Of a DNA stretch of 64,000 bases, positions 7,617 through 28,621 are shown piece by piece. Positions within the stretch are counted from its first letter, which is position 1; every line of letters starts with the position of its first letter. Below the pieces are notes generated by a model that saw only the letters and a program-made list of their open reading frames with translations, had not been told where the DNA came from and made no database searches. The stretch comes from Prosthecobacter sp. (lineage in GTDB: Bacteria > Verrucomicrobiota > Verrucomicrobiia > Verrucomicrobiales > Verrucomicrobiaceae). The DNA lies in the NCBI RefSeq assembly GCF_034366625.1, contig NZ_JAXMIH010000023.1, forward strand, positions 248,001-312,000, written 5' to 3'. The translations under genes were made by a program, and so were the position numbers.

Positions 7617-8243
7617 ATGCCCACCACCAACCCACATGAATACAACCTCAGTTTCACCGCCGCATCATTGCGTCCAGAATTGGCGAGGATCGTTGCGGAA
7701 TACTATTTGGAGACAGGCAATTGGGATCTCGCGAAAGACCGCACTCTCTCGATGAACGCTCTCCAATGTCGGAGCGCGAGCAGCGCGATACGTCTTGAGC
7801 GGGAGCTGCGTCAGCGGTTGGAGACATTGACTCATGATCAGATCACCTTTCTCGCCCAAGCCACCACAGAAGATCGCACCGCTATCGCCTGGCTAGCTGC
7901 GTGTAAACACATCCGCTTTGCCTTCGAATTTGCAGCGGAGGTGTTGAGGGACAAGCTCTCCGTTCACGATCCAATCCTGCGTCATTCCGACTATGAGGCT
8001 TATGCGGAGACCAAAGGATTGTCTCACCCGGAGTTTGTTCGCTTGACGACCTCATCGAAGAACAAAATCCGGCAAGTGCTCCTGCGGATGCTCACCGAGG
8101 CGGGCCTGCTTGTAAAAGGGACCTCGCTTGGGACCATTCAGCGGCCAGCCCTCTCGCCGGCAGTTTTGCACGTCATCAACACAGACAGCCCGAGTTGGTT
8201 GGCAGGGTTCCTGGTTCCAGACATTGAAATTCCAAGCCGCTGA
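7617..8243 (+). CDS. brxA: BREX protein BrxA
   Basis: The 208-aa product matches BrxA (DUF1819): an N-terminal YNLSFTAASLRPELARIVAEYYLETGNW, then RSASSAIRLERELRQRLETL, the conserved central HIRFAFEFAAEVLRDKL and the C-terminal FLVPDIE. BrxA is a small DNA-binding protein of BREX with a winged-helix fold, conserved in types 1, 3, 5 and 6. It is the first core gene of the operon; brxB starts 5 nt after its stop. Length is normal (~200 aa). Confidence 0.93.
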   Translation: MPTTNPHEYNLSFTAASLRPELARIVAEYYLETGNWDLAKDRTLSMNALQCRSASSAIRLERELRQRLETLTHDQITFLAQATTEDRTAIAWLAACKHIRFAFEFAAEVLRDKLSVHDPILRHSDYEAYAETKGLSHPEFVRLTTSSKNKIRQVLLRMLTEAGLLVKGTSLGTIQRPALSPAVLHVINTDSPSWLAGFLVPDIEIPSR

Positions 8244-8851: not shown

Positions 8852-8856
8852 CTTTC

Positions 8857-12426: not shown

Positions 12427-13749
12427 ATGTCAGCCCTTCAAACCATCACCGATGACTTGCTCATTGAGGCGATCAATGGCGCAACTCAAAGAATCGTAAT
12501 GATCGGGCCGGGAGTCTGGCCGCCGCTGGCGAAGGCCATTGCGAAGGCCTGGCTGCGACTGGGGCCAAAAAACGTCACCGTCATTCTCGACGTGGATCCG
12601 GAGATTTGCCGGATGGGTTACGGTTCGTTGGAGGGCTTGGAGGTTTTGCAGAAAGCCGCCTCCGCCGCCGCCGAACCTTTGGGCGGTGAGCCGGGCGTCC
12701 GCATCTGCGTGGTCATCGCTGACGACCAGACCTTTGTTTTCAGCCCCACTCCTCGGCAGTTGGAGGCACCGCCGGGCCAATCGCCCGTGGTTTCCAACGC
12801 GGAGCCGCAGTCCCAGCCCAAGGCTAACGGCATCGTTCTCACCAAGCCGCCCGCTGCGTTGGAAGCGGATTTGGGCAGTGGTCCTGATGGCGTAACGACC
12901 CGCACCTTGGGATTGGATGTTTTGGACCAGAAAAAATTGGAGGCGGTCCAGCAGGACCTGAAACAGAATCCGCCCAAGAACTTCGATCTCGCTCGCGCAG
13001 TGAATGTTTACAATGCCCGCATCCAGTTCGTGGAACTTCATGTGGACGGCTATCGTGTGTCGCAGCACACAGTGGCCTTGCCGAAGCACCTGGTCAGTGT
13101 TGCCAGAAAGAACAAGGAACTTGCGCGCAAAATTGCGAGTGCCGTGAAACTCCTCGACAGCGAAGATCTGCTGGTGGGCGGAGGCGAGCCCGGTATTGAA
13201 TCAGAGCAAATCTGCGGACCTTTTGTTTCCCAAGCCACGGTTGAGGCTGTCCGAAATGCCATTGATGAAAAATTCCTTCGCCCGGTAAAGGGCGTCGGCA
13301 AGATCATCCGAAGAGCACAGATTGACGAATTTAAGACCGCCGTCACGAATTTAGAGCACACGCTCGCCATCTTTTCGCATGCGCTGAAACAGGTGCTTGC
13401 CGCCCTGTTCCGAAAAACCGCAGAAGAAATTGCCGACGCCATCCTCCCTGACGTCCTCCAGCAGCTTCCTGAAAAATGGCAGAAGCAACTCGGCCCCACC
13501 CCTCGACCCGAGCATGTCCGCTTCCGGGTCATCGACGATCTGCTCCATTCTTTTGGTGATCCCGAGAAGCGTTGCGAGGCCATGAAAGTTTCCTTCATCT
13601 TCAAGGATGTGACCTACGACATGCTCAAGGACGATGAGTTCGTGAAGTTGATGGACGCCTATTTTAACGAGCCCCCGATGCTGGAAGAATACAGCGCGGC
13701 CAAAGAGCGCCCCGCCGCTCAGGACACCCAAAAAGATCTTTTCTCGTGA
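12427..13749 (+). CDS. BREX-operon protein with degenerate PLD-like N-terminal domain
   Basis: This 440-aa protein is not one of the standard BREX genes. Residues ~10-115 resemble half of a phospholipase D fold: a helix AINGATQRIVMIGPGV, a strand VTVILDVDPE, and GVRICVVIADDQTFVFSPTP at the place where the HxKxxxxD motif would be. The histidine and lysine are missing, so it should be catalytically dead and may bind nucleic acid or protein. A Pro/Gln linker follows (~115-150), then an all-helical C-terminal half (ILPDVLQQLPEKWQKQLGPTP). The gene is embedded in the operon: pglX starts in its stop codon (GTGA). The domain call is from pattern reading and should be treated as provisional. Confidence 0.75.
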   Translation: MSALQTITDDLLIEAINGATQRIVMIGPGVWPPLAKAIAKAWLRLGPKNVTVILDVDPEICRMGYGSLEGLEVLQKAASAAAEPLGGEPGVRICVVIADDQTFVFSPTPRQLEAPPGQSPVVSNAEPQSQPKANGIVLTKPPAALEADLGSGPDGVTTRTLGLDVLDQKKLEAVQQDLKQNPPKNFDLARAVNVYNARIQFVELHVDGYRVSQHTVALPKHLVSVARKNKELARKIASAVKLLDSEDLLVGGGEPGIESEQICGPFVSQATVEAVRNAIDEKFLRPVKGVGKIIRRAQIDEFKTAVTNLEHTLAIFSHALKQVLAALFRKTAEEIADAILPDVLQQLPEKWQKQLGPTPRPEHVRFRVIDDLLHSFGDPEKRCEAMKVSFIFKDVTYDMLKDDEFVKLMDAYFNEPPMLEEYSAAKERPAAQDTQKDLFS

Positions 13750-16700
13750 ACACCTCCGCCCTCAAGACCTTCGCCCCAGCCGTCCGCAAGCAACTCATGG
13801 AGGCTGTCACGCGCAAGCTCGACTTCGCCCTCACCGCCCAGACGCCCGACTACCTCACCACCTTCGCTCCGCAAGTCGCGGCTCTGCGGAAGCTCGCGCA
13901 GGCCGACCGCCCCGGCCTCAACGAACGTGTCGCCTACACCTGGTTCAACCGCCTCGCCGCGCTCCGCTTCATGGACGCCCGCGGCTGGCATCCGTTCCGT
14001 GCCCGCGTCCTCACGCCGGCCAGCGCGGCGGAGACCCAGCCCGAGCTGCTCAAGCTCACCCGCACCGGAGCCTTGCCCGAGGAACTGAAGTCCCACACCG
14101 ACTCCGCCCGGCTCAATGACCTCCTCGATGGCCGCATCCCGTCGCCGGATGCGCAGGGCGAAGTCTATCGCCACCTTGTCCTCGCCGCCTGCCGGTTCTA
14201 CCACGCCCTGCTGCCGAACCTCTTCGAGAAACTCGACGACGAGACCGAGCTGCTCCTTCCCGATGACCTCCTAACCGAGCACTCCGTCGTCCACGGCTTT
14301 CGCACCGAGATCAGCGACGAGGACTGCGGCGACGGGCAGCGGGCCAATGTCGAGATCCTCGGCTGGCTCTACCAGTTCTACATCTCCGAGCGGAAGGACC
14401 AGGTCATGGCCCGCAAGAGCGCCGTGCCCACCGAGGACATCCCCGCCGTCACCCAGCTCTTCACCCCGCACTGGATCGTCCGCTACCTCGTCGAAAACTC
14501 CCTCGGCCGGCTCTGGCTGCTCAATCGCCCCGGCTCCCGGCTGCGCGAGCACATGCCCTACTACATCGCGGGCGAAAATAATGCCCCCGGCGGTTCGCCC
14601 GACGACTTCCTCAAAATCACCAAGCCCGAGGAAATCCGCCTGTGCGACCCCGCCGTCGGCAGCGGGCACATGCTCACCTACGCCTTCGACCTGCTCACCC
14701 TCATCTACGAGGAGGAAGGCCACGCGCCCACCGAGATCCCCGCCCTCATCCTGCGGCACAATCTGCACGGGCTGGAGATCTGCCCCCGGGCCGCCCAACT
14801 CGCCGAGCTGGCCCTCGTCTTCAAGGCCCGGGAAAAGTCCCGTCGCTTCTTCCAGCCCGAACACCTCGTCCGGCCCCGCATCATCGAGCTGCGCGACGTG
14901 CGCTTCGCGGAAAACGAGCTGCGCGACTACATCCGCGCCCTCGGGCTGGGCGACCTCTTCAATCAGCCGATGCTTCGGCTGCTCCACCAGTTCGAGGAAG
15001 CGAAGAACTTCGGCTCGCTCATCCAGCCGTGCCTCGACGAACGGGCCATCGCCGACGTCCGCCGCGCCATCGAGGCGAAGGACCTCGGCGGCCAGCTCTT
15101 CCTGCGCGAGACGCACCTCAAAGTCCTGCGCGTGCTCGAACAAGCCGAGGCGCTCACCCAGCGGTATCACGTCATTGCCGCCAATCCACCGTATATGGCA
15201 GCAGCAGCGATGAACCCACAGTTGAAGGACTTCGTTGAGACTAATTGGGAGGCGGGTAAAGCTGATACCTATTCGGCCTTCATACTTCGGAATTTGAAAC
15301 TCGCTTACTGCGGCGGAAGGGTTGCGATGATCACCACGCCGAACTGGATGTTCCTAAAAGGGTTCGAGAGTCTGAGGGAACAGCTCTTGCAAGAGACTCA
15401 CATTTCCAGCCTTGTTCACTGTGGTCGAGGAGTCTGGGGTGGCGATTTCGGGAGCTGTGCATTTGTTATTCAGTCATCAAAGAACCCGGAAATGCCGGGA
15501 GTGTTCAAACGCTTGTTCAAGCGGCCGGGAGAAATTCAGTCGAATGAAGAAATTGAAGCGAACTTTTTCAATGTTGCCGACTTTCCCAATTACACCGCAA
15601 CAAGCTCGAGTTTCCGTGGCATCACTGGTTTGCCAATCGCGTATTGGATCAGTAAAGCCTTCATTAATGTTTTCCAAGAATCCGAACCTCTTATAAAACG
15701 TTTCCAAACGAGGCTTGGTCTATCGACGGCGAATAACGAGCGGTTTCTCCGACTTTGGTTTGAAGTAGCCCCGTCAACTATCAAGATGGACGCGCCATCG
15801 CGGGACATTGCATTGAAATCAGGGAAACGTTGGTTTCCATATCAAAAAGGCGGAGCGTTCCGAAAATGGTTTGGGAACGGGGAACTCCTCGTGGACTGGA
15901 GCGATGACGGTCGTGAGATCAAAAACTTCGGTGCGGATCAAGGTCGCATTCGATCGCATAACTATAACCTCGACTATATTTTTCGCGAAGGGGTGACTTG
16001 GTCTGATGTTACGTCGGGACGGAATGCTTTTCGCTATATGCCTTCAGGCCAGCTTTTTGATGGCCGTGGCTCCAGCGGGTTTGCCATTGGAGATACAAAC
16101 TGGCGAGTTGTGCTTGGACTGCTGAACACTTCCCTGAGCTACGAAACAATTGGTTTCATAAATCCGACCATTGCAATCAACGTCGGAGAAATTGGGCGCA
16201 TCCCATATCACAAGTCACTCTATCAAATAGCAGATAGGATTGTGAGCATTGTCGATGAGTGTATTTTCCTTGCCCGCGCCGACTGGGACAACTTCGAGAC
16301 CTCGTGGGACTTCCGCGACCAGCCGTTGCTGCGGCCGGGGCTGAAGGGCGCGACGCTGGAGGCGAGCTGGCGGAATTGGGAGGCGCAGAGCACCGCCGCC
16401 ATCCGCCGGATGCAGGAGCTGGAGACGGAGAACAACCGGCTCTTCATCGCCGCCTACGGCCTCGACGGCGAGTTGCAGCCCGAAGTGCCCGAGGCGCAAA
16501 TCACCCTCGCCCGCGCCGAGGCCCGCCGCGATTTGGCCGCCTTCCTCTCCTATGCCGTCGGCTGCATGATGGGCCGCTATTCCCCCGACCACCCCGGCCT
16601 CATCCTCGCCAACGCCGGCGACTCCCTGCGTGAGTTTCTGGAAAAAGTGGGGAAGCCCTTGGCCGAACTCACCTTCGCCCCCGACGAGGACGGCATCGTT

Positions 16701-17270
16701 CCCGTGCTCGACGGTGAATGGTTCGAGGACGACATCGTGGCCCGCACCCGCGATTTCCTCCGCGCCACCTTCGGCGAAGCCACGCTGCGCGAGAACCTCC
16801 GCTTCATCGAAGACTCCCTCGGCAAAGACCTGCGGAAGTATTTCCTGAACGACTTCTACAAAGACCACCTCCAGACCTACAAGAAGCGCCCCATCTACTG
16901 GCTGGTCCAGAGTCCGAAGAAAGGCTTCAGCGTCCTCCTCTACCTGCACCGCTACACCCGGGACACGATGAACCTCGTCCTGAACCGTTACCTCCGCGAC
17001 TACCAGGTAAAGCTCCGCAACCGCCTTCCGCACCTCGTTCAAGAGCAAGCCACAGCCAGCACCGCCAAAGCCAAAACGGATGCCCGCAAGGAAGCTGACA
17101 AGCTCACCAAAATCCTCACTGAATGTGAGGAATGGGAGCGTCAGACCATGCTGCCACTCGCCCAAGCCCGAATCGAACTGGACCTCGATGATGGCGTGAA
17201 GACCAATTACCTAAAACTCGGCGAAGCCCTCGCCCCCATCGCCGGGCTGGCGGCAAAGGAGGAGGATTAA
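13746..17270 (+). CDS. pglX: BREX adenine-specific DNA methyltransferase PglX
   Basis: PglX methylates host DNA at the BREX site and is needed for defence. The 1174-aa protein has SAM motif I LCDPAVGSGHMLTYAFDLL (near residue 300) and the catalytic NPPY at residues 480-483, typical for N6-adenine methylases. The GTG start overlaps the stop of the PLD-like gene by 4 nt. Base use changes within the gene: both flanks are very GC-rich, whereas about 15180-16250 (residues ~480-835), following NPPY and covering the expected target-recognition region, is visibly less GC-rich with different codon choice. This suggests that the recognition region was exchanged by recombination. No frameshift is seen. 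Confidence 0.95.
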   Translation: MNTSALKTFAPAVRKQLMEAVTRKLDFALTAQTPDYLTTFAPQVAALRKLAQADRPGLNERVAYTWFNRLAALRFMDARGWHPFRARVLTPASAAETQPELLKLTRTGALPEELKSHTDSARLNDLLDGRIPSPDAQGEVYRHLVLAACRFYHALLPNLFEKLDDETELLLPDDLLTEHSVVHGFRTEISDEDCGDGQRANVEILGWLYQFYISERKDQVMARKSAVPTEDIPAVTQLFTPHWIVRYLVENSLGRLWLLNRPGSRLREHMPYYIAGENNAPGGSPDDFLKITKPEEIRLCDPAVGSGHMLTYAFDLLTLIYEEEGHAPTEIPALILRHNLHGLEICPRAAQLAELALVFKAREKSRRFFQPEHLVRPRIIELRDVRFAENELRDYIRALGLGDLFNQPMLRLLHQFEEAKNFGSLIQPCLDERAIADVRRAIEAKDLGGQLFLRETHLKVLRVLEQAEALTQRYHVIAANPPYMAAAAMNPQLKDFVETNWEAGKADTYSAFILRNLKLAYCGGRVAMITTPNWMFLKGFESLREQLLQETHISSLVHCGRGVWGGDFGSCAFVIQSSKNPEMPGVFKRLFKRPGEIQSNEEIEANFFNVADFPNYTATSSSFRGITGLPIAYWISKAFINVFQESEPLIKRFQTRLGLSTANNERFLRLWFEVAPSTIKMDAPSRDIALKSGKRWFPYQKGGAFRKWFGNGELLVDWSDDGREIKNFGADQGRIRSHNYNLDYIFREGVTWSDVTSGRNAFRYMPSGQLFDGRGSSGFAIGDTNWRVVLGLLNTSLSYETIGFINPTIAINVGEIGRIPYHKSLYQIADRIVSIVDECIFLARADWDNFETSWDFRDQPLLRPGLKGATLEASWRNWEAQSTAAIRRMQELETENNRLFIAAYGLDGELQPEVPEAQITLARAEARRDLAAFLSYAVGCMMGRYSPDHPGLILANAGDSLREFLEKVGKPLAELTFAPDEDGIVPVLDGEWFEDDIVARTRDFLRATFGEATLRENLRFIEDSLGKDLRKYFLNDFYKDHLQTYKKRPIYWLVQSPKKGFSVLLYLHRYTRDTMNLVLNRYLRDYQVKLRNRLPHLVQEQATASTAKAKTDARKEADKLTKILTECEEWERQTMLPLAQARIELDLDDGVKTNYLKLGEALAPIAGLAAKEED

Positions 17271-17289: not shown

Positions 17290-19575
17290 ATGGAACAGAT
17301 CATCTCCCAGATTCAAAGCGCTATTAGCCAGTTTGAAACCGTGTTACTGCCGAAGCTTCCAATGGTTTCAAGGGATCCAGATGATGCCAAGGAATTAAAC
17401 AAGCGACTCGAAGAGCTGCGCCGAATCGAAAAAGAAGCAAGCCAGCCTCCCTGCTTTTCCATTCGTTTCCTGGGAGATACTCAAAATGGAAAGAGCACTC
17501 TGATCAATGTTCTGCTCGGACGCAAGGTGCTGCCCGAGGGGCATGTTGGGGCGTGTTCCGCTACTATTGTTCGCTGCCGATACAAGAAACAGAAGGACAT
17601 TACCATCGAGTTCCGGTATGCAACCGAGGACGATTTTAAGCGGGATCTTGAACAGAAGTGTCAGGACGCGGAACAAGTTCTGGTCGAAGAGGAATCAGAA
17701 GCGAAACGCCGGGAAGTGGTGTGCGGGCTTCTGGGGCGATTTCTACGGCTTTTTGAAATCGAGGCTGAATCCGTCCCAAACACTGCGGAGCTGATCAGCC
17801 GTTGCCGTCGGCAGTCGGAGAATTTCAAGGAAATGGCTTTGCTCGGTACGGTCGAAAAACTGGTGGTCGGACCGGATACGGAGAAGGCCATCCAACAAAA
17901 CCTCTCCGCCAAGGGACAGCGGGCATTCATTGTGGATGAATGTCTCATTGAAGGCGCATTTTCAGAGTGGCACCCCGCCATGGAACTGGTGGACATGCCA
18001 GGGACCAATGCTTTCAATCCGTATGACGATCAGGTGAATGCCAGACTCAAACAAAAGGTCGGCGGACTGGCGATTGTCACCAAGGAAACCCAGCTACACA
18101 GCACGGTGATGGACTGGTTCAAAGAGAGTAGTATTCTGCCGGACGTCGCTGGCGCGTCGGAGCGCAATCAGGTTCGGGTCTTTGTACTCAAGACGTTTGT
18201 GGACCAGCTAAATCTGGATGAAGAGGACGAACGATCTGCATGGGAGAAGACTCGTGAATACTGTGAGGAGATCGGCAAGCATCTCAAAAAGCAAATCATG
18301 AGTCTCGTGCATCAACGCTACTCTGCACTCAATGAGATCGAAGTTTTGAAGGGATTCGTGGAACAACTACCTCTCCATTATCTCAGCCCCAGGGTTTATC
18401 GAGCCTTGGATGACGACGGTTTGCGGAATCGGGTGCTCGGCGATCCTCTGAATCACACGGCCCTGGCAGATGGCTTTAAGCGGTTTGATCAAAAACCCGT
18501 GAACACCGGAATTCCGACATTGAAACAAGACCTTCGTCGGCAAACGGAGAACTACATCCAGTCACACTTCTGGAACAAACTTCAGCTCGATTATCGAAAG
18601 GAGACGGGCCTGGTGGCCCGCTTTTTTCGCAGTCAGAGGGTGGGAATTGAACAACGATTGGCCAACAAAGGTGCGTTTATCCATGAAGTTAACCAAGGAC
18701 TCCGAAACGAGCTCCTACGGTGTGTTGGATCTCATCACGAAGCGACCGAAACGAAAGTCGTGAACCTGAAGCGCCGATTTCACGAAGAATTTGGCGGACT
18801 ACTCGAACAGGTTGCCGCGGACTTCGGCACCAAAACCCGCAGGAAACTTCAGGACTGGATGACCCTGCATTGGGCCAGTCTCCGGTGTGCAGGTCGGAAA
18901 AACGGACAGCACATCACTTCCCGTGGATATGAAATCGATTTTAATGGTGACCTCGCGGACTTCTGCGTCGAGGCCCTCAATTCGTCATGGATCTCTCACA
19001 GGGCTAGCTTGCGCAAGCAGCTCCTGGACGACCTCCGGTTGGATTTCATCCCGGCTATGGATAAGCTTGTCTATCAAGCCAAGGGACAGGATGATCAACG
19101 TATTAGCCTGATCGAGTCCACCTACCAAGACCTGGTCGAACAGACACGGCAGAACCTCGATCTTCAACTGGAGCAATATGATGCGGAGGCGGAGCAGTTC
19201 GATGCACTTCGGCCCGCCCTCGCCCTTCAAATTCGGACCTTCTTGCAGCCCACGTATTCCGAGATAGCGGACGAGATCGGCAAGGGTTCATCGGCGAGAA
19301 TGCGCAATCATTTGAATGACGGAGTCCTGAGAAGCATCCAGAAAATCAGCCATCTGGTAAAAGATACGGTTCGACAGAACTGGGATGGTCTCACCTCGGC
19401 GATGGAAAAGAGCATTGATACATTCTTTGAGGAGATTGAAACAGGTCTTCAAGAACAAGCTGAGCGGCTGGAGCGAATGGCTCAGCACCCTTCAGAGGGT
19501 GATGAGGAGCGTGTGAAACAGTGGTTGGAGATGGAGCAGGAAGTTGAAAGCTGGAATGCAAAGGAGGCCGCATGA
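17290..19575 (+). CDS. Dynamin-like GTPase
   Basis: This 761-aa protein has a dynamin-family GTPase domain: G1 GDTQNGKST (residues 62-70), a switch region ACSAT, G3 DMPG (235-238) and a candidate G4 KTFVD. The rest is long and helical with several coiled-coil segments (RRIEKEA..., LDLQLEQYDAEAEQFDALRP), as in bacterial dynamin-like proteins. No clear membrane segment is seen. Bacterial dynamins remodel membranes, and some are tied to phage tolerance by delaying lysis. It lies between pglX (19-nt gap) and the helicase (ATGA overlap at 19572), so it is an integral part of this operon although not a standard BREX gene. Ends with a charged tail. Confidence 0.85.
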   Translation: MEQIISQIQSAISQFETVLLPKLPMVSRDPDDAKELNKRLEELRRIEKEASQPPCFSIRFLGDTQNGKSTLINVLLGRKVLPEGHVGACSATIVRCRYKKQKDITIEFRYATEDDFKRDLEQKCQDAEQVLVEEESEAKRREVVCGLLGRFLRLFEIEAESVPNTAELISRCRRQSENFKEMALLGTVEKLVVGPDTEKAIQQNLSAKGQRAFIVDECLIEGAFSEWHPAMELVDMPGTNAFNPYDDQVNARLKQKVGGLAIVTKETQLHSTVMDWFKESSILPDVAGASERNQVRVFVLKTFVDQLNLDEEDERSAWEKTREYCEEIGKHLKKQIMSLVHQRYSALNEIEVLKGFVEQLPLHYLSPRVYRALDDDGLRNRVLGDPLNHTALADGFKRFDQKPVNTGIPTLKQDLRRQTENYIQSHFWNKLQLDYRKETGLVARFFRSQRVGIEQRLANKGAFIHEVNQGLRNELLRCVGSHHEATETKVVNLKRRFHEEFGGLLEQVAADFGTKTRRKLQDWMTLHWASLRCAGRKNGQHITSRGYEIDFNGDLADFCVEALNSSWISHRASLRKQLLDDLRLDFIPAMDKLVYQAKGQDDQRISLIESTYQDLVEQTRQNLDLQLEQYDAEAEQFDALRPALALQIRTFLQPTYSEIADEIGKGSSARMRNHLNDGVLRSIQKISHLVKDTVRQNWDGLTSAMEKSIDTFFEEIETGLQEQAERLERMAQHPSEGDEERVKQWLEMEQEVESWNAKEAA

Positions 19576-22253
19576 GTCTTGCAGCGGGAGATCTCGTCCG
19601 GCTTGCTGAGGCGGACACTAGGGGCGAGCTGATCGGTAAGGTCGAACGAGTTGGCCGACACCAGGCTCGCGTGCTTTTCCGGCGGCTTCCATGGACACCT
19701 CCCTCAGTCGCCCTTCCAGAGATGCGAGACTTTCCAATCGAGCAGTTGGAACTGGTTCGTGATCCTTGGAGTGACATGGCCAACGGCCGGTGGTCCGAGT
19801 TGGAAGCTGTGCGTCTTCGTGTCCGATGCGCTGAGCTGTGGATAGGCAACCAGCACGGACAGTTGGGCAATGCTCGAACCGATCTTCTTCCGCACCAAGT
19901 GTGTCTCGTGCATGAGGTGGTGGAGCGTAAACGCCGTCGCGTGCTGATCGCTGAAGAGGTGGGCATGGGCAAGACCATCGAAACTGGGATGATCATCCAT
20001 GCCCTCGTGCAGCGACGAGAACTGGAGCGCTGCCTTGTGGTCTGTCCTGCCGGGCAGATCAGCCAGTGGCAGGAGGAACTCGAAGATAAGCTGCGGGTCC
20101 GTTTTGAGGTTTACCGCCATGACATCGACGGGCAGCGTGCGTTTAGCTATCCAAGGGTCATAGCCTCTCTGGATACGCTGAAGCTGGATGCTCCAACCAA
20201 GCACCTGCGGGGGAAAAGCCATCTGGAAATTCTCTTGGAAGCCCCGAATTGGGATCTGGTCGTTTTCGACGAGGCCCACCGGCTGACGGCTCGTGATTAT
20301 GGCAGGAAAACGGAGAAGACCCTCAATTATCGGCTAGCCGAGCAACTGAGCCAACGCACTCGTGATTTCATCCTGCTCACAGGAACACCCCACGATGGCA
20401 ATGACGGCAAGTTTCGCAATCTGCTGAAGGCCCTGGAACCCGATGTGTCCTTCTCACGCCAGCAGCCGGGGATATTCTTTGGCGATCTCATCCTCAAGAA
20501 CCGGAAATCCGAGGTCCGTGACGCGACAGGCGAGCTGCTGTTCAAGCAGGTGAAGGTCGAGAAAATGTCACTCGCCGCCTTGGATTCTGGAGAAGCGCAG
20601 TTTCACTCGGCGCTGACTCAATATCTCCGCGAAGGGTATGGTGTGGCCGAGAAGGACCCAGCCGATCCACGAAATCGGGCTCTCGGCTTTGTGATGGTCA
20701 CTTTTCAGAAGCTTGCTTCGAGCAGTGCAGCCGCTGTCAGGGCGGCACTTCAGAAACGCCTCACGCGGCTGAGAAAAATTGAAATGATTGTAGCTTCAAT
20801 GGAATCCGAACTGGAGAGTTCTGAAGATAGCCGATTTGTCGGTGAGGAAGAGGAACGCACTCTGGAGGAACTCCAGGCCAAGCTCTTGCGAGATGCCTTC
20901 ACCGCCAGCGAAGTGAAGATGCTCCAGGAACTCCTGGAGTGTCCCATACTCGCCGAAGCCAAATGGAACGAACTGTGCCGCCTGATCAATGCTGGAATCC
21001 AGAGCAACGTGTCAGAGAAGTTTCTGATTTTCACAGAGTACCGGGGCACTTTGAGCTTTCTCGAAAAGTCGCTTACTCAGCGCCACGGAGTGGGATCTGT
21101 CGCCACAATTCAAGGCGGCATGGGAGTGGAGGCCCGCAGGGAGGCCATGCGGCGATTCCGAGACGATCCTGCCTGTCGATTCCTCGTATCGACGGAAGCG
21201 GGCGGTGAGGGTATCAACCTGCAATTCTGCAGCATCGTAGTGAACTATGATCTCCCGTGGAATCCCTTTCGAGTCATCCAGCGCATCGGACGTGTCCACC
21301 GCATCGGGCAACAACGGGACATGCAGGTCTTCAATTACCGACTGCACAATGAACTGGATCAGCGGTTGAGCGAATGTCACGAGCAGAGGGTGGAGTTATC
21401 AGTCACGAGGTTGAGTGAAGTGACGGGCCTGGTCCCTTCCGACGTGCGAGATCAATTGCTCGGATTCGCCCAGGAGTTCATCAACTATGACAAGATCTTT
21501 GCGGACTCTCTCGCTAGGGCCAACACCAGATCATCCGAGGAGGAGATTTCCGAGGGTATACGCCGCGCAGAAGAAGCTTTCAAAGTGGCTTACGAAACCG
21601 TTTTCAAACATGCCGTCGCTCCTTTCAACCCCGAGCGCTTTGACAAGCTGGTTGGCGGCTCATTGACGCTGGATAGCTTGCACGAGTGGCTGGACGTGTG
21701 GTTGAAGACCAACGGTCGCCGGCTCATGCACCGGGAGGATGAGGACTTGTATGATTTCCTGCTCCCGGAATTCCTGAAACACCGTTTTCCTGTCGGCGAA
21801 CGCTCTGTGAAGGGAACCTTTGATCGGGCAAGAGCAATGAGGGAGTCGTCCGTGCCGTTGCTGGCATTTGGACATCCTGCAATTGATACGATTGGACGCC
21901 AGGCGATGTCGTCTGATGCAGGGGGCTTTGTTAGCGCAGCGCTATTTCCTCATGATGAACCAGAATTTGATGTCCTAGTGGTCGCCCTGCTCCAAACGAA
22001 GTCGCATGACGGTGCGTCCGCTCATCGATTGCTTCACATCAAGAGAGATCTCTCGGGAACATGGAGCTTTGCTGATCCGGCGCTTCTGGATCGTCTCGGC
22101 GAAAATACAAACAAGGCAGTCGCTTTCACGCCCGAAGGTCTGAGTGATTCGTTCGAGGCATTTGTCCAGAATCAGTTTCCCGATCTCGATTTCGCTGCCG
22201 ATCAACTTCACTACGTTGCCGCACTTTTCAGCTCCCCCTGTAGCCATGTCTGA
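19572..22253 (+). CDS. SNF2-family helicase (BrxHII / DrmD-like)
   Basis: This 893-aa protein is an SNF2/HepA-type DNA-dependent ATPase. Motif I EEVGMGKTIETG has K134; motif II is DEAH (233-236); LLTGTPHDG is motif III; the second RecA domain has FLVSTEAGGEGINLQF and VIQRIGRVHRIGQ. In BREX nomenclature the SNF2-type helicase is BrxHII, found in types 3 and 5; DrmD of class 1 DISARM is a relative. No DrmA or DrmB is present, so BREX is the better label. It would translocate along DNA to support the restriction or methylation complex. The ATG overlaps the dynamin stop and its own stop overlaps the pglZ start. Confidence 0.92.
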   Translation: MSLAAGDLVRLAEADTRGELIGKVERVGRHQARVLFRRLPWTPPSVALPEMRDFPIEQLELVRDPWSDMANGRWSELEAVRLRVRCAELWIGNQHGQLGNARTDLLPHQVCLVHEVVERKRRRVLIAEEVGMGKTIETGMIIHALVQRRELERCLVVCPAGQISQWQEELEDKLRVRFEVYRHDIDGQRAFSYPRVIASLDTLKLDAPTKHLRGKSHLEILLEAPNWDLVVFDEAHRLTARDYGRKTEKTLNYRLAEQLSQRTRDFILLTGTPHDGNDGKFRNLLKALEPDVSFSRQQPGIFFGDLILKNRKSEVRDATGELLFKQVKVEKMSLAALDSGEAQFHSALTQYLREGYGVAEKDPADPRNRALGFVMVTFQKLASSSAAAVRAALQKRLTRLRKIEMIVASMESELESSEDSRFVGEEEERTLEELQAKLLRDAFTASEVKMLQELLECPILAEAKWNELCRLINAGIQSNVSEKFLIFTEYRGTLSFLEKSLTQRHGVGSVATIQGGMGVEARREAMRRFRDDPACRFLVSTEAGGEGINLQFCSIVVNYDLPWNPFRVIQRIGRVHRIGQQRDMQVFNYRLHNELDQRLSECHEQRVELSVTRLSEVTGLVPSDVRDQLLGFAQEFINYDKIFADSLARANTRSSEEEISEGIRRAEEAFKVAYETVFKHAVAPFNPERFDKLVGGSLTLDSLHEWLDVWLKTNGRRLMHREDEDLYDFLLPEFLKHRFPVGERSVKGTFDRARAMRESSVPLLAFGHPAIDTIGRQAMSSDAGGFVSAALFPHDEPEFDVLVVALLQTKSHDGASAHRLLHIKRDLSGTWSFADPALLDRLGENTNKAVAFTPEGLSDSFEAFVQNQFPDLDFAADQLHYVAALFSSPCSHV

Positions 22254-24753
22254 CTCCCGAATCCACAATAGTCTCCAACAGGTCTTCCAACGCCATCGTT
22301 TGGTTTTTTGGTATGATGCCACGGGTGAATGGGTGGAGACCTTCAACGGCTATCCCGATGAAAGCGTGGTCAAGCTCACGGTGGCAGGCAATGAGTTTGG
22401 CACCAAGGTGCGCATCGTCCGTGATCCGAACCCCGATGCCAAGTTCCTGATTTATGTGCCCACAGCCCGCCCGGCGGATGCGGACAACTGGCTGCTGGAC
22501 CTGCTGCTGCAAGGCTATGAATACAAGGCGGACAAGGCCTCGCTGGCGCTCCAGGAAGTCGGCCTACCGCACGAATTTCTCCATCTCGCAGAAGCGCATG
22601 GCAAGTATTTCCACAGCGCGAAGCGCGTCCAAGCCCTGAAGGAAATGATCGGCAGGGACGACCAGAGCCGGGAGATCCGGCTCAAGATGATGGCGGTGCT
22701 CGCGGACACCGACGTGGAGGTGGATGCCATGCTGCTGCGCTTTCTCCGCACGGACCCGGAAGCGGATTTAATCGCAACGGATCGAGTGGACGAGTGCCTC
22801 GGGGCGGCGGCCTTGGCGGAACCGTTTTGGCAGGAAGTGGAGCGCCTCTTTGGCTACACGGCGGCAGTCCCTTCATTGCGGGACTTCGCCGTGTCACTGT
22901 TTCGCGGAGCCAATCCGCTGGACACTCAGGCGGCACTGCACCCCCACGCGAAAGTCTTCCTGCAACGGTGGAAGGACAGCCAAACACACAGCCTCTGGTT
23001 TCGCGACTGGGCGCACCAAATGGAGAAGGAACTGCAAATCGTCGCCGCACTTGGCGGGCTGGACGAGCGGAAAACACTCGGCGATTGCGATACGTTTGAG
23101 ATTTTCGAGAAGTTTACTCTGCACCGGCTCTGCCAGTCGTTTGCGAACGGGGCCGCCGCCATGGACCTGCGTGCGGTGGTGCAGCAGCGACGGGGCTCCA
23201 TCTGGTGGCCGCAGCACGAGCATGGCTATGCCGCCCTGGAGCAAGCGGTGGAACTGCGTGAACTATTGGCCGGGGCTGAGCTAACAATGGACTCTGTCAC
23301 CAGTGGCGTGAGTCGTTATGTGACCACTTGGTGGCGGATCGACATGGCCTACCGCCTTTGCACCTGGAACTTGCGCCGCTACGGTCAGGTGCAGGTGATG
23401 GAGCAAATCTCTCAATGGGTGGAGAAGTCCTATGTGAATAATTTCCTCCTCCCGCTGGCCGACCGCTGGAGCGATCAAGTTCGCGGCATGGAATCGTGGG
23501 GGTGCTCCGACGTGATCGCCCAGCGGCGTTTCTTCAGCCACTATGTGCAGCCATTCCTGACAAAGGGGCAGAAGGTATTCGTGATCATCTCTGATGCCCT
23601 CCGCTATGAAGCGGCATCTGATTTTGCGCAGCGGCTGCGCTCCGCCAATCGCTGGACCGCTGAGGTGGAGGCGCTGTTTGGCTCCCTGCCATCCTACACC
23701 CAGCTCGGGATGGCGGCTCTGCTGCCCGGTCAGCAACTGACCGTGGACGCAATAACGGCAACAGTGACCGTGGATGGACGCGGCGCTACGGGCACGGCCA
23801 ATCGCCGCGAGATCCTGAGCCTCGCCTGTGATGGAAAAGCGACAGCCATTCAAGCAGAAGAGTTCCTGGAACTGAACACGAAGACCGAGGGCCGTGCGCT
23901 GATGCGCGATCACGAGGTCATTTACATCTTCCACAACATCATCGACAAGACCGGCGATGCGGCTGGCACGGAGGCGAAAACTTTCGATGCCGTGGAGCAA
24001 GCCTTCGCGGAGCTAGATCTGATCATCAAGAAAGTGGCGAACATCAACGGCAGCAACATGCTGCTCACGGCGGATCACGGCTTCCTCTTCCAGCAGGACG
24101 ATGTGGCTAAAGACGATGCCACGCCCCTGCCAACCGCCGGCGAATGGACGTTCCGCAATCGGCGGTTTGCGCTAGGACTAGACATCCCACCGAACGCCAA
24201 AGTGAAGATATTCGACAGCACTGAACTGGGATTGGCCGGTGACTGGTCAGCCGCATTTCCTCTCTCGCTCGGGCGCTTTCCGCTTCAAGGCTCTGGGATG
24301 CGCTACGTCCACGGCGGCAGCAGTCTGCAAGAGGTGGTGGTGCCCGTGGTCAAGATTCACAAGGCCCGCGCTGATGACACGGACAAAGTAGAGATCGAGC
24401 TGCTGCGCGTGCCCGCCAAGATCACTACGGGTCAACTTTCCATCGCGCTTTTCCAGGACCGGCCCGCTCAAGGCAAGGTGCTGCCCCGCACGCTCCGCGT
24501 GGGCATCTTTGCCAAAGACGGCACGAGTTTGTCAGAGATCAAGACGCATACCTTTGACTCCAAAGAGTCGGAAGCACGCCAGAGAGAGACGACCCTACTT
24601 TTGGTGCTTTCCGCCGCTGCCGATACATTCAACAACCGCGAGGTGGATCTGCGCCTCGAAGAAACCGTCTCCGGCACGATCCAGATCGTGACTTACAAGA
24701 CGCACAGCCTCAAACTCCAGAAACCCTTCACCAGCGACTTCGATGAGCACTGA
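22246..24753 (+). CDS. pglZ: BREX alkaline-phosphatase-superfamily protein PglZ
   Basis: PglZ is the signature gene of all BREX systems. The 835-aa product has the metal-binding motifs of the alkaline phosphatase superfamily: FVIISDALRYEAA (D450) and LLTADHGF (D610, H611). The N-terminus (VFWYDATGEWVETF) is typical of PglZ. ATG 22246 (MSDSRIHNSLQQVF) is chosen because it overlaps the helicase stop by 8 nt; the frame is open further upstream only inside the helicase gene. The end overlaps brxL by 11 nt. Confidence 0.95.
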   Translation: MSDSRIHNSLQQVFQRHRLVFWYDATGEWVETFNGYPDESVVKLTVAGNEFGTKVRIVRDPNPDAKFLIYVPTARPADADNWLLDLLLQGYEYKADKASLALQEVGLPHEFLHLAEAHGKYFHSAKRVQALKEMIGRDDQSREIRLKMMAVLADTDVEVDAMLLRFLRTDPEADLIATDRVDECLGAAALAEPFWQEVERLFGYTAAVPSLRDFAVSLFRGANPLDTQAALHPHAKVFLQRWKDSQTHSLWFRDWAHQMEKELQIVAALGGLDERKTLGDCDTFEIFEKFTLHRLCQSFANGAAAMDLRAVVQQRRGSIWWPQHEHGYAALEQAVELRELLAGAELTMDSVTSGVSRYVTTWWRIDMAYRLCTWNLRRYGQVQVMEQISQWVEKSYVNNFLLPLADRWSDQVRGMESWGCSDVIAQRRFFSHYVQPFLTKGQKVFVIISDALRYEAASDFAQRLRSANRWTAEVEALFGSLPSYTQLGMAALLPGQQLTVDAITATVTVDGRGATGTANRREILSLACDGKATAIQAEEFLELNTKTEGRALMRDHEVIYIFHNIIDKTGDAAGTEAKTFDAVEQAFAELDLIIKKVANINGSNMLLTADHGFLFQQDDVAKDDATPLPTAGEWTFRNRRFALGLDIPPNAKVKIFDSTELGLAGDWSAAFPLSLGRFPLQGSGMRYVHGGSSLQEVVVPVVKIHKARADDTDKVEIELLRVPAKITTGQLSIALFQDRPAQGKVLPRTLRVGIFAKDGTSLSEIKTHTFDSKESEARQRETTLLLVLSAAADTFNNREVDLRLEETVSGTIQIVTYKTHSLKLQKPFTSDFDEH

Positions 24754-26875
24754 ATCCACACCCGATCCCGCAGTCAATGAAGAGCAGGAGACATTTGTCG
24801 CCGAGCCACGTCCTTTGAGTCCGTTGGATCAAAAAATACTCCAGCACTTCCCCGGATTGGTAGTGCGTAAAGACCTGACCAAAGGACTAAAGCAGAACGC
24901 GGTGGTCCCCACCTACGTGCTGGAATACCTGCTGGGTCAGCACTGCGCCACCGATGACAATGAAGTGATCAAGGCGGGCCTGGAATCCGTTCAGAAGATC
25001 CTGGCCAAGCACTATGTGCATCGAAACCAGGCGCAACTGGTGAAGTCCACGATCAAGGAAAAGGGGCGGCACAAAGTCATCGACAAGCTGACCGTTGAAC
25101 TGAACGATAAGGGCGGATTTTACGAAGCCGAGTTCACCAACTTGGGCCTCAAGAAAGTGCCTGTGTCTGACGATTTTGTCCGCAGGTATCCGAAGCTGCT
25201 GGTGGGTGGCATCTGGTGTATCACCGATGTGACCTATGAAGTCGCCGAAGACCCCAAGGCAAGTCCATGGCAGATCGACACGCTGAAGCCGATTCAGGTA
25301 GCCAGCGTGGACTACGACCAGTTTCTGACAGCTCGGGCGCAGTTCACCACCGAAGAGTGGATGGACGTGCTGATGCAGAGCATGGGCTTCAATCCCGAGA
25401 TGTTCGGGCGGCGGGCAAAGATGCTGACTTTGATTCGCCTCATCCCGTATTGTGAGCGCAATTACAACCTCCTCGAACTCGGGCCGAAGGGCACTGGGAA
25501 ATCCCACATCTACGCGGAGTTCTCGCCTCACGGGATGCTCATTTCCGGTTCGGAAGTCACCGCCCCAAAACTCTTCGTCAGCAATTCCAGCGGCAAGATC
25601 GGCCTCGTCGGCTATTGGGATTGCGTTTGCTTCGACGAGTTCGCCGGCAAGGACAAGAAGGTGGACAAGGCGCTGGTGGACATCATGAAGAACTACATGG
25701 CCAACCGCACTTTCTCACGGGGGATCGAGCAGCTCACAGCCGAAGCTTCGATGGTGTTCATGGGCAACACCAAGAAGTCCGTGGCCTACATGCTCAAGCA
25801 TTCCCATTTCTTCGAGCCGCTGCCTGACAAGTATATCGACTCCGCCTTCCTCGACCGCATCCACGCCTACAACCCAGGCTGGGAAGTCGCTCCAATCCGG
25901 CATGACCTCTTCACCAACGGATATGGCTTTGTCGTTGATTTCATCGCCGAGGTTTTGAAGCACCTGCGAACGGAAGATTTCACAGGGGCTTACAAACAGC
26001 ACTTTGAGGTCGCCTCTGAAGTCTCCACACGCGATCAGACCGGCTTTGAAAAGACTTTCTCCGGGCTGATGAAGATCCTCTTCCCGGATGGCAAATGCAC
26101 TCCCGTGGAGACTGAGGAACTGCTGGCTTTCTCTATGGAATCTCGTCGGCGTGTGCGTGAACACATCCTGCGCATCGACGACACCTTCAAGCGCCACGAC
26201 TTTATCTACAGACCTCTCAGTGGAGGTGCGCCAGTAACGGTGCTGACCCCTGAAGAAATTCAGTATCCAACCTTTGCTGGGCAGCGAACTCAGCAAGCCG
26301 TCAATGGTGAGCCAGGTCCTGAGGTCCATGAAGACATTCCTCCTGCGGCTGAGCCGTCTCCTGCAACGCCAACAACCGCTGTCGCAGATGAACCGCAGCC
26401 TGGACATGTCGTGATCCCCGAGAACACCAAGGGCTGGAGCTACCGTCGTCTGTTCGCCAAGCACCTCACCGGCGCACGCAGCATCACCATTTGCGATCCG
26501 TATGTTCGCATGTTCTTCCAAGCTAGGAACCTGATGGAGTTCCTGCAAATGGTCCATGATCTGGTGCCGGAGGGCGATGAGGTCACCGTGCACTTGAGGA
26601 CTCAATCGGATCCTGACTCGTGCGTCAAACAGGCGGAGAATCTTGACCAAATCGCCGACTCGTTCGCCGGTTCCCGCATCGCATTCACATGGGAGGACGA
26701 TCCCAGTCCCAACTTTCACGCTCGAAACATCACCACGGACACCGGATGGAAAATCACCATTGACCGAGGCATGGACATCTTCCAGCGTTATGAAACGGGA
26801 CCATTCTCACTCGCGCAAGCGATGCAGGAAGCACGCCTGACACGGGGTGCTGAAATCACCTATTTCAAAGTGTGA
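24743..26875 (+). CDS. brxL: BREX ATPase BrxL with C-terminal MIT_C/PLD-like domain
   Basis: The 710-aa protein has a BrxL AAA+ core with Walker A GPKGTGKS (residues 247-254) and Walker B-like VCFDEFAGKD. BrxL is the DNA-binding, Lon-related ATPase that marks type 1 and type 4 BREX. Instead of an obvious Lon serine/lysine protease domain, a linker (~480-560) leads to a C-terminal domain (~566-710) with ITICDPYVRMFFQARNLMEF, NFHARNI and GWKITIDRGMDIFQRY, which matches the MIT C-terminal (PLD-like) fold known from MITD1. The start overlaps the pglZ stop. The domain assignment is from recognition of motifs and not from a search. Confidence 0.9.
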   Translation: MSTESTPDPAVNEEQETFVAEPRPLSPLDQKILQHFPGLVVRKDLTKGLKQNAVVPTYVLEYLLGQHCATDDNEVIKAGLESVQKILAKHYVHRNQAQLVKSTIKEKGRHKVIDKLTVELNDKGGFYEAEFTNLGLKKVPVSDDFVRRYPKLLVGGIWCITDVTYEVAEDPKASPWQIDTLKPIQVASVDYDQFLTARAQFTTEEWMDVLMQSMGFNPEMFGRRAKMLTLIRLIPYCERNYNLLELGPKGTGKSHIYAEFSPHGMLISGSEVTAPKLFVSNSSGKIGLVGYWDCVCFDEFAGKDKKVDKALVDIMKNYMANRTFSRGIEQLTAEASMVFMGNTKKSVAYMLKHSHFFEPLPDKYIDSAFLDRIHAYNPGWEVAPIRHDLFTNGYGFVVDFIAEVLKHLRTEDFTGAYKQHFEVASEVSTRDQTGFEKTFSGLMKILFPDGKCTPVETEELLAFSMESRRRVREHILRIDDTFKRHDFIYRPLSGGAPVTVLTPEEIQYPTFAGQRTQQAVNGEPGPEVHEDIPPAAEPSPATPTTAVADEPQPGHVVIPENTKGWSYRRLFAKHLTGARSITICDPYVRMFFQARNLMEFLQMVHDLVPEGDEVTVHLRTQSDPDSCVKQAENLDQIADSFAGSRIAFTWEDDPSPNFHARNITTDTGWKITIDRGMDIFQRYETGPFSLAQAMQEARLTRGAEITYFKV

Positions 26876-27949: not shown

Positions 27950-28258
27950 TACGCCGCCCACGCTGCAACATCGGTTGCTGTCGAAGCAAAAATCACGCGA
28001 GCGCCCAGGAAGGCCGTTGTGATGTTTTGAGTGTTGTTGTCGGCTCACAGTCCCGCTTTGCTTCGTAATTCTGCGCTGCTCCCGGTTTTGGTCCCACTGC
28101 GGATATGGCTCGGTTATGGCGGAAGCCGTCTGACCGTCAACCCCCGGCCCGCTCCATTCGCTTCGCTCCCGTGTTGGGGGCATGACCGCCAGCCTCATAG
28201 CTCCCGCCTTTGCACCGTCGCCCCGCAGTGGGGTGAAACCAAAACAAGGAGCAAAACT
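27950..28258 (+). other. Non-coding leader before the DUF6876 gene
   Basis: About 300 bp without a credible gene. The segment 28138-28190 is nearly repeated at 29197-29250 ahead of the next small gene: both contain CCCGGCCCGCTCCATTCGCT followed by CGCTCCCGTGTTGGG and CATGAC. A ribosome site AAGGAGC lies at 28246-28252. It may be a structured 5' leader. Confidence 0.5.
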
Positions 28259-28621
28259 ATGACGCAGAAAACACTCACAAAAGCAGACCTCAGCCAGTTC
28301 ACCGGCACCGAACAATGGTATCGCCACGGCCTCGCACGCAACGTGCTCTACACCGAAGGCGCACAACACGTCGCTGAAAGCGGCGGAGCCTACTGGCTCC
28401 TCGATGAAATCGCCTTCGCTCAACCCATTCGCGAAGTCGCAGCCGAAGCCTTTCAGGTCTGGCGGCTGAAGGTCAACCCTGACCACAGCGCGACGCTTGC
28501 CTGTGAAGATGGCAATTCAAAAATCGTCTTCACCAAGGAAATCGAGTTCACCGATTTCCCTCTCGATGAGATTGCCTTCTACTTCACAGACAACGTGCTG
28601 ATGCTGCCCAGCGAATACTAG
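28259..28621 (+). CDS. DUF6876-family small protein
   Basis: This 120-aa protein (MTQKTLTKADLSQFTGTEQW...) has the DUF6876 pattern: LARNVLYTEGAQHVAESGGAYWLLDEIA and a C-terminal FPLDEIAFYFTDNVLMLPSEY. The family is common in plasmids and integrative elements and has no known function. The start is fixed by AAGGAGC seven nt upstream. It is a single-gene unit: long leader before it and an intrinsic terminator right after its stop. Confidence 0.88.
   Translation: MTQKTLTKADLSQFTGTEQWYRHGLARNVLYTEGAQHVAESGGAYWLLDEIAFAQPIREVAAEAFQVWRLKVNPDHSATLACEDGNSKIVFTKEIEFTDFPLDEIAFYFTDNVLMLPSEY

What the first reader, a model, noticed from the sequence alone, without database searches (positions are those of the whole stretch)
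17290..19575. Dynamin-like GTPase translated as part of a BREX operon
A complete dynamin-type GTPase sits between pglX and the helicase with an ATGA overlap to the helicase. Bacterial dynamins act on membranes and have been tied to phage tolerance. It suggests a second, membrane-level line of defence coupled to BREX.
Basis: partly seen in the sequence, partly recalled or inferred. Interest (0 to 1): 0.65.

Follow-up and report, generated by a model that had tools for sequence, protein, structure and literature searches.

The report
Dynamin-like GTPase paired with defence helicase
Inside a bacterial anti-phage (BREX) operon sits a gene for a dynamin-like GTPase which, in several other bacteria too, lies next door to a DNA helicase and lacks the usual membrane-inserting part, suggesting a little-known GTPase-helicase partnership in DNA-modification-based defence.

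Summary
In detail: 17290-19575 encodes a complete 761-aa dynamin-superfamily GTPase in a complete type-1 BREX operon, between pglX and a Swi2/Snf2-like helicase it overlaps by ATGA. The membrane interpretation is not favoured. The protein ends in a rare domain (DUF7605) and lacks a BDLP-like hydrophobic paddle. Searching by dynamin sequence alone gave five more members with its HWA[ST]L signature. All six abut a same-strand BrxHI/HmaA-like helicase: in type-1 BREX (this one), two Hma (BREX-related) operons, a methyltransferase/GmrSD/UvrD island, and two short contigs. None of 24 other dynamin loci examined does. Against: three cyanobacterial relatives without HWA have no such helicase; three of the six loci are close relatives; no second true BREX locus with the gene was seen. 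Dynamin and helicase share codon usage distinct from the core brx genes, so they probably entered BREX as one cassette. Best reading: a GTPase that works with the helicase, perhaps loading or licensing it on foreign DNA; the biochemistry is inferred. The 2026 BREX survey's main text mentions neither GTPase nor dynamin. New variant of a known kind.

The parts
7617..8243 (+). brxA
   Evidence: PADLOC BrxA 4.3e-46, PF08849
8249..8851 (+). brxB
   Evidence: PADLOC BrxB 4.3e-44, PF08747
8848..12360 (+). brxC (P-loop ATPase)
   Evidence: NF033441 1033 bits, over cut-off
12427..13749 (+). orfX, 440 aa, unnamed accessory protein of type-1 BREX
   Evidence: no hit in PADLOC/Pfam/NCBIfam; homolog between pglX and pglZ of an Acinetobacter towneri BREX-1 locus
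13746..17270 (+). pglX, BREX-1 adenine methyltransferase
   Evidence: NF033452 1253.7 bits, over cut-off
17290..19575 (+). dynamin-superfamily GTPase with DUF7605 domain (the finding)
   Evidence: PF00350 6.8e-13 and PF24564 3.6e-12; dynamin-superfamily structural matches
17473..17496 (+). P-loop GDTQNGKS (G1)
   Evidence: sequence; G62, G67, K68, S69 invariant in 4 of 4
17992..18003 (+). G3 motif DMPG
   Evidence: sequence; D, P, G invariant in 4 of 4
18193..18204 (+). G4-like element T-F-V-D (T302, D305)
   Evidence: T302 and D305 invariant in 4 of 4
18868..18882 (+). HWASL signature in the DUF7605 region, at the end of the longest helix of the (low-confidence) models
   Evidence: HWA invariant in 6 of 6; absent in 3 of 3 cyanobacterial relatives
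19279..19302 (+). GxGxxxR[MVI] motif
   Evidence: 6 of 6
19560..19567 (+). Shine-Dalgarno-like AAAGGAGG for the helicase, inside the dynamin gene
   Evidence: sequence
19572..22253 (+). Swi2/Snf2-like helicase (best PADLOC model BrxHI), ATGA overlap with the dynamin gene
   Evidence: PDLC02500 3e-93; PF00176 and PF00271 over cut-off; GMGKT, DEAH, QRIGRVHRIG
22246..24753 (+). pglZ type A (ATG at 22246 overlaps the helicase by 8 nt)
   Evidence: TIGR02687 652 bits, over cut-off; start read from sequence
24743..26875 (+). brxL with C-terminal phospholipase D-like domain
   Evidence: PF13337, PF20442, PF16565/MIT_C; TIGR02688 over cut-off

Best explanation
The gene encodes a dynamin-superfamily GTPase without a membrane-inserting paddle that works together with the adjacent Swi2/Snf2-like helicase. 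The two form a transferable two-gene unit found in methyltransferase-guided defence systems: here it has been added to a type-1 BREX operon, and in BREX-related Hma operons the GTPase is attached to the system's own helicase HmaA. Proposed mechanism (inferred): the methyltransferase marks self DNA; the BREX/Hma sensor proteins recognise unmarked DNA; the GTP-loaded GTPase assembles into an oligomer through its G domain and helical stalk and, through the HWA-containing region, binds the helicase or its nucleoprotein substrate; GTP hydrolysis then times loading, release or activation of the helicase on the foreign DNA. Shown here: protein family, intact GTPase motifs, operon geometry, recurrent pairing, compositional unity of the pair. 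Inferred: physical contact, oligomerisation, target, effect on phage.
For: 6 of 6 HWA-type members, collected by dynamin sequence alone, abut a same-strand helicase; 0 of 24 other dynamin loci do. The helicase lies either downstream (window, L041, L039, L061) or upstream (L013, L060) of the dynamin, so the pairing is not one inherited gene order. Contexts: type-1 BREX, two Hma/DUF499 operons with HmaB and HmaC, a type-III-like methyltransferase + GmrSD + UvrD island. Dynamins and helicases fall into the same three groups {window}, {L013, L060}, {L041, L039, L061}. In three of six genomes (G722, G387, G1035) the paired helicase is the only BrxHI-model match at E <= 1e-20. Dyn and helicase have the lowest GC3 of the nine operon genes (0.583, 0.615; others 0.636-0.763), the only positive third-position GC skews (0.072, 0.015), and a mutual codon-usage distance of 0.61 against 0.94-1.50 to the other seven genes. 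No hydrophobic paddle.
Against: Three cyanobacterial relatives of the wider family (E 5e-85 to 3e-56) are not beside such a helicase; identified neighbours are EamA transporters, a calcineurin-like phosphoesterase, an aldehyde dehydrogenase and an Hpt protein: 6 of 9 overall. A tree joins them to the Hma-type members at support 0.97, so the HWA type may not be one clade. L041, L039 and L061 are 52-79% identical, so the six loci represent about three independent cases; BREX itself is one case. The helicase family often lacks the dynamin: in 3 of 41 plasmid records looked at, no dynamin was annotated or detected nearby. PF24564 is called in only 3 of 6 members at E <= 1. The helicase profile of the final tally was built from four of the six helicases (L060 and L061 were not in it), the control loci were not randomly sampled, and some loci end close to the dynamin. 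Models are low confidence. The brxC-orfX pair has an equally small codon-usage distance (0.59). Adjacency does not prove contact.
Confidence: 0.5

Rival explanations
1. One reading: a membrane-acting dynamin giving a second, membrane-level line of defence (as Bacillus DynA, which delays lysis), simply hosted in the BREX operon.
For: Dynamin-superfamily structural matches, best SynDLP, mitofusins, the Campylobacter DLP pair and BDLP; DynA protects Bacillus populations by delaying lysis (PMC8844932, abstract and passages).
Against: No hydrophobic paddle in the family; constant neighbour is a helicase; members sit inside DNA-modification operons.
Confidence: 0.17
2. Backup effector: the GTPase is an abortive-infection protein held in check by the helicase or the intact BREX complex and released when a phage inhibits them, comparable to the PARIS/OLD and other backup effectors found inside BREX and BR operons.
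For: BREX/BR operons often carry embedded effectors (PMC12839542 section 35 part 1); the L013 Hma operon also holds a Fic gene beside the dynamin, and a Klebsiella plasmid operon with DUF499, DUF1156 and SNF2 genes holds a SIR2-family gene.
Against: This one keeps the same partner class in three contexts. No catalytic domain besides the GTPase was detected with significance.
Confidence: 0.22
3. Chance or simple hitch-hiking in a mobile defence island; no functional link to the helicase.
For: The window carries two integrases, a TrwC relaxase, a TraG/TraD-like protein and a plasmid-type replication initiator.
Against: 6 of 6 against 0 of 24; about one to four BrxHI-like helicase genes per genome in six genomes, so repeated adjacency by chance is very unlikely (inference, not computed); 4-nt overlaps in the window and L013.
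Confidence: 0.07

Closest known systems
Type-1 BREX (brxA, brxB, brxC, pglX, pglZ, brxL)
   Same: All six core genes present, BREX-1 type PglX, PglZ type A, BrxL with a PLD-like C-terminal domain
   Different: Carries a dynamin-like GTPase and a Swi2/Snf2-like helicase between pglX and pglZ, plus orfX; the survey PMC12839542 names six components for type 1 and ascribes BrxH-type helicases to types 2 and 3 and some type 5 (passages)
Hma system = DUF499-centred BREX-Related (BR) systems
   Same: Two relatives of the GTPase lie inside operons with hmaA, hmaB and hmaC, next to hmaA
   Different: Described as three genes (helicase, methylase, ATPase); no dynamin in the passages of PMC8565338 or the sections of PMC12839542 that I saw
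Bacterial dynamin-like proteins (BDLP, DynA, SynDLP, Campylobacter DLP pair)
   Same: Dynamin G domain plus long helical stalk
   Different: No hydrophobic paddle; C-terminal DUF7605 with HWA signature; partner is a helicase
LeoABC-type dynamin clusters
   Same: Weak match to LeoBC/LeoA models (2.8e-10, 5.5e-4)
   Different: Five plasmid loci of generic relatives each hold three or four neighbouring dynamin genes; here there is one. Calling those loci Leo-like is my reading
DUF7605 (PF24564) proteins, many of them eukaryotic and named after a nuclear GTPase (recalled, not from a call)
   Same: The Pfam model matches above its cut-off
   Different: Bacterial, in a defence operon; no functional data available here
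McrBC/CoCoNuT GTP-dependent restriction
   Same: A GTPase coupled to restriction (analogy only)
   Different: McrB is an AAA+ protein, not a dynamin

Membership tests
Type-1 BREX | Six core genes brxA, brxB, brxC, pglX, pglZ, brxL in one cluster | tested here: met
Type-1 BREX | BREX-1 type PglX and PglZ type A | tested here: met
   NF033452 and TIGR02687 over cut-off
Type-1 BREX | N6-adenine methylation at a BREX site and phage restriction | not testable with these tools
   needs culture and methylome
Dynamin superfamily | Dynamin G domain with intact G1, G3 and G4 elements | tested here: met
   PF00350 over cut-off; motifs; G4 is a T-x-x-D variant
Dynamin superfamily | Helical stalk/trunk after the G domain; dynamin-like fold | tested here: inconclusive
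   long helices 408-732 and 49 of 49 PDB matches dynamin-superfamily, but the model is low confidence and whole-chain TM-scores are at most 0.33
Membrane-remodelling bacterial dynamin (BDLP-like) | Hydrophobic paddle or transmembrane anchor | tested here: not met
   maximum C-terminal KD19 at most 1.07 in 6 of 6 (one a fragment), against 2.2-2.6 in five GDM-type proteins
Membrane-remodelling bacterial dynamin (BDLP-like) | Lipid binding and GTP-dependent membrane activity | not testable with these tools
   needs purified protein
DUF7605 family (PF24564) | Match over the Pfam gathering score | tested here: met
   47 bits, cut-off 27; 3 of 6 family members match at E <= 1
Leo (LeoABC) system | Two or more Leo-type dynamin genes together (definition recalled) | tested here: not met
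   single dynamin gene in the operon; weak model match only
Hma / BR system | HmaB methylase and HmaC/DUF499 ATPase | tested here: not met
   the window has PglX and BrxC instead; met in L013 and L060

The most novel reading that the evidence does not exclude
A dynamin-family GTPase has been redirected from membranes to nucleic acid: it is the GTP-driven assembly factor or switch of a defence helicase, a bacterial counterpart of the non-membrane antiviral (Mx) and nuclear (DUF7605/SLIP-GC-like, recalled) dynamins, and it forms a plug-in GTPase-helicase cassette used by BREX, BREX-related and other methylation-guided immune systems.
Probability: 0.3. Interest if true: 0.85.

Novelty: new variant of a known kind. 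Interest (0 to 1): 0.6.

Why it matters
The bacterial dynamin best studied in phage defence (DynA) acts at the membrane. A dynamin tied to a DNA helicase in several kinds of methylation-guided immune system would give a directly testable case of a dynamin acting on DNA or nucleoprotein. It would also add a component class that the recent BREX survey's main text does not mention, and show how accessory cassettes plug into BREX and its relatives.

Tried and rejected
Searches that found nothing useful: P0001 by tblastn in plasmids; P0001, L013's dynamin, A1 and A2 in viral contigs (0, 2, 27 and 171 pattern matches, none confirmed); L041 and L060 dynamins in plasmids; L041's helicase in plasmids at 1e-40. 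The only phage-collection match to P0001 was a 54-residue G-domain piece at E 0.01, ignored. L013's dynamin matched 11 plasmid records, all over the G-domain region only; five of them were fetched as controls.

Rows dropped before counts: 10 of 387 genomes rang with P0001; only the window's genome and G177 are true members, G373 and G007 were fetched as controls, and G017, G022, G145, G284, G312 and G367 (E 4e-4 to 9e-4) were not followed. Of 18 loci from the genome-contig scan, 15 matched a two-sequence profile with significance only in the G domain and were treated as generic. L024 is the same place as L013 and was counted once. In one search G855 was read as generic (L062, a control); G981, G1003, G1150 and G1187 matched at 1e-7 to 1e-6 over the P-loop region only and were not fetched further. 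The short flank loci from the genome search (L001-L012, L017, L018, L042-L059, L068-L071) were not used in the 33-locus tally. Of 41 plasmid records with a relative of the window's helicase, 3 were opened.

Considered and rejected: Leo membership (one dynamin gene here); Hma membership of the window (BREX core instead); 'BrxL has a membrane-binding MIT_C domain' as support for a membrane role, because PMC12839542 describes the C-terminal domain that replaces LonP in many type-1 BrxL proteins as an HKD nuclease. The first AF2 model (pLDDT 51) was not searched; the second has 61. The likeness to eukaryotic nuclear GTPase SLIP-GC rests on memory of what DUF7605 proteins are called; one search listing gave nothing useful, and 'DUF7605' occurs in no held paper.

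Full report
1. Observation. The window carries one compact defence operon on the + strand (gaps of at most 66 nt): brxA 7617-8243, brxB 8249-8851, brxC 8848-12360, orfX 12427-13749, pglX 13746-17270, dynamin 17290-19575, helicase 19572-22253, pglZ 22246-24753, brxL 24743-26875. All six type-1 BREX core genes are there. The dynamin gene is complete: ATG, 761 codons, TGA; its stop overlaps the helicase start as ATGA, with AAAGGAGG 5-12 nt upstream of that start. Residues 59-266 match Dynamin_N and 515-679 match DUF7605, both over Pfam's cut-offs. The P-loop, DMPG and a T-x-x-D element are intact, so it is probably an active GTPase (inference). The helicase's best PADLOC model is BrxHI (3e-93), followed by HmaA (1.3e-85) and DrmD (4.8e-74); Pfam gives SNF2-rel_dom and Helicase_C. 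PMC12839542 calls BrxHI Ski2-like and BrxHII Swi2/Snf2, so the PADLOC name should not be pressed.

2. What the protein is. By profile the nearest solved structures are BDLP (2j68) and the Campylobacter dynamin pair (5owv), matched in the G domain. The second AF2 model (13 sequences, pLDDT 61, pTM 0.46) has a G domain followed by very long helices; the 49 PDB matches at E <= 0.001 are all dynamin-superfamily proteins, with whole-chain TM-scores of at most 0.33. In both models the most conserved C-terminal element, HWASL...GG (527-539), falls at or just after the end of the longest helix, before the next long helix, roughly where dynamins carry their lipid- or target-binding tip (general knowledge). 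pLDDT there is below 50, so the placement is tentative.

3. Membrane features. The maximum 19-residue hydropathy after the G domain is 0.38 in the window protein and 0.17-1.07 in the six family sequences, one of them a fragment. In the same table five cyanobacterial dynamins with a GDM-type P-loop reach 2.2-2.6, as expected for a BDLP-like paddle. Several other generic dynamins there are also low (about 0.8-1.3), so the low value is not unique to this family. It argues against BDLP-like membrane insertion, not against peripheral binding.

4. Relatives. The family is rare. PF24564 rang in 2 of 387 genomes of the window's phylum, the window's own and G177. The phylum is inferred to be Verrucomicrobiota in the GTDB sense because the G177 contig has the length and match of a Lentisphaerae record. 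The A2 profile rang in 1 of 274 genomes of the class of G387 (Hydrogenophaga), G387 itself; in 3 of 250 of its family: G387, G722 and a weak generic match; in 6 of 299 of its phylum: G387, G1035 and four weak matches. The A5 profile, at a stricter cut-off of 1e-15, rang in 3 of 189 genomes of a cyanobacterial draw and 0 of 185 of the class of a Competibacteraceae MAG. The draws overlap in part. One scan of the species-genome collection with two short patterns gave 18 confirmed loci, of which three were true members: L024 (= L013), L039 and L041.

5. Gene neighbourhoods. L013/L024 (Lentisphaerae MAG): HmaA helicase, dynamin overlapping it by 4 nt, Fic protein, HmaB, HmaC/DUF499. L060 (G722): WYL regulator, HmaA, dynamin, HmaB, HmaC/DUF499. 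L041 (Hydrogenophaga sp. IBVHS1): type-III-like methyltransferase, GmrSD-like protein, UvrD-like helicase, dynamin, Swi2/Snf2-like helicase. L039 (Rhizobacter MAG): dynamin, Swi2/Snf2-like helicase, contig ends upstream. L061 (G1035): dynamin fragment at the contig edge, BrxHI/HmaA-related helicase. With the window that is 6 of 6. In a uniform test of 33 loci with one helicase profile the result was 6 of 6 for HWA-type members, 0 of 3 for cyanobacterial relatives and 0 of 24 for other dynamins. One of the 24 (L022) has a weakly matching helicase on the other strand about 3 kb away. The profile was built from four of the six paired helicases (window, L013, L041, L039), so L060 and L061 are the out-of-sample cases; it also detected the three plasmid helicases in L063-L065 (365-405 bits), so it is not blind to relatives. 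A few loci end within 2 kb of the dynamin on one side (L014, L036, L039, L061, L074).

6. Counter-results. The three cyanobacterial relatives (L072, L073, L074) belong to the wider family (same C-terminal region; W, L and G kept, HWA replaced by PWQ, SWQ, NWQ) but have no such helicase and ordinary-looking neighbours. So the domain as such is not a helicase partner; the HWA-type subset is. An unrooted tree joins the cyanobacterial sequences to the Hma-type ones at support 0.97, so the HWA type may be ancestral rather than a clade. L039, L041 and L061 are 52-79% identical, so there are about three independent cases, and BREX proper is one case only. The helicase family often stands alone: in the 3 of 41 plasmid records opened, no dynamin was annotated or detected nearby.

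7. The pair as a unit. Pairwise identities place dynamins and helicases in the same three groups. In the window, dyn and helicase have the lowest third-position GC of the nine operon genes, the only positive third-position GC skews and a mutual codon-usage distance of 0.61, while their distances to the other seven genes are 0.94-1.50; brxC and orfX form another such pair (0.59). A type-1 BREX locus on an Acinetobacter towneri plasmid has the order brxA-brxB-brxC-pglX-orfX homolog-pglZ-brxL, with neither dynamin nor helicase annotated, a natural comparison without the cassette. I infer that the dyn-helicase pair was inserted together between pglX and pglZ.

8. Mechanism. The constant partner is a helicase, the identified operons are DNA-modification systems and the membrane-insertion element is missing; I therefore favour a GTPase that assembles with, loads or licenses the helicase on unmodified DNA. 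Dynamin relatives that act on viral nucleoprotein or in the nucleus (Mx proteins; SLIP-GC) are precedents from general knowledge, not tested. PMC11789081 (passages) states that no bacterial or archaeal ortholog of Mx-like genes was found and that the bacterial dynamins linked to defence cluster weakly with mitofusin-like proteins. A backup-effector role is the main rival.

9. Literature. PMC12839542, the 2026 comparative survey of BREX and BREX-related systems, has no 'GTPase', 'dynamin' or 'GTP' in its main text; I read sections 28, 33 and part 1 of section 35 and passages elsewhere, not the supplements. PMC8565338 (Hma definition), PMC10853773, PMC12458937, PMC9009780 and PMC11090510 have no 'dynamin' in the main text (find results only). 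Listings for BREX + dynamin + phage, dynamin-like + antiphage + helicase + methyltransferase + defence island, dynamin + GTPase + BREX + methyltransferase, dynamin-like GTPase/Hma/DUF499/BrxHI, dynamin + conflict-system terms, bacterial dynamin + phage + defense, dynamin + DISARM + operon + anti-phage, PglX + GTPase and DUF7605 showed no title or abstract start reporting this pairing; most listed papers were not opened. Only open-licence PMC papers were searched. Dynamins and Hma are listed as separate systems in a Pseudomonas hotspot (PMC12629846, passages), and dynamin genes of a Pseudomonas island gave no protection against the phages tested there (PMC12595487, passages).

10. Verdict. The gene is real and part of a defence operon. 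The membrane reading is not favoured. The most interesting result is the recurring dynamin-helicase pair, a new variant of a known kind.

Noticed in passing
window 12427-13749: orfX (440 aa) between brxC and pglX has no library match but a homolog (25% identity over 96%) between pglX and pglZ of an Acinetobacter towneri plasmid BREX-1 locus and another (29% over 93%) on a Caballeronia plasmid: an unnamed accessory gene of type-1 BREX.
   Followed up: partly
window 24743-26875: BrxL carries a C-terminal phospholipase D-like domain (Pfam MIT_C), in line with the HKD variant of BrxL described in PMC12839542; the catalytic residues were not checked.
   Followed up: partly
window 917-2017, 3464-4435, 38842-42099, 42421-43956, 44858-46114, 55531-55606: Two integrases, a TrwC relaxase, a TraG/TraD-like protein, a plasmid-type replication initiator (RPA) and a tRNA-Lys: the BREX operon seems to lie in an integrated conjugative or plasmid-like element.
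   Followed up: no
window 31109-34504 (-): 1131-aa protein with RNase H-like and AAA_11/AAA_12 helicase domains; its C-terminal part matches PADLOC MkoA at 2.2e-44: possible further defence gene in the same island.
   Followed up: no
window 4575-6368 (-): Divergent WYL/WCX-domain gene upstream of the operon; a WYL gene also heads the Hma-dynamin operon in L060, so it may be the regulator.
   Followed up: no
window 28136-29977: Two pairs of direct repeats (78 nt at 88%, 43 nt at 93%) about 1.1-1.2 kb apart, suggesting a duplicated segment downstream of brxL.
   Followed up: no
L015 680-10549: Cluster with a patatin-like phospholipase fused to a dynamin domain and two further dynamin-domain genes, in a genome of the same phylum.
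   Followed up: no
L013 9524-10645 (-): A Fic-family gene (PADLOC SoFic 1.2e-111) sits between the dynamin and hmaB inside the Hma operon.
   Followed up: no
L072, L073, L074: Cyanobacterial dynamins with a diverged DUF7605-like region, two of them near an EamA transporter; 43-65% identical to each other, possibly a conserved non-defence branch.
   Followed up: partly
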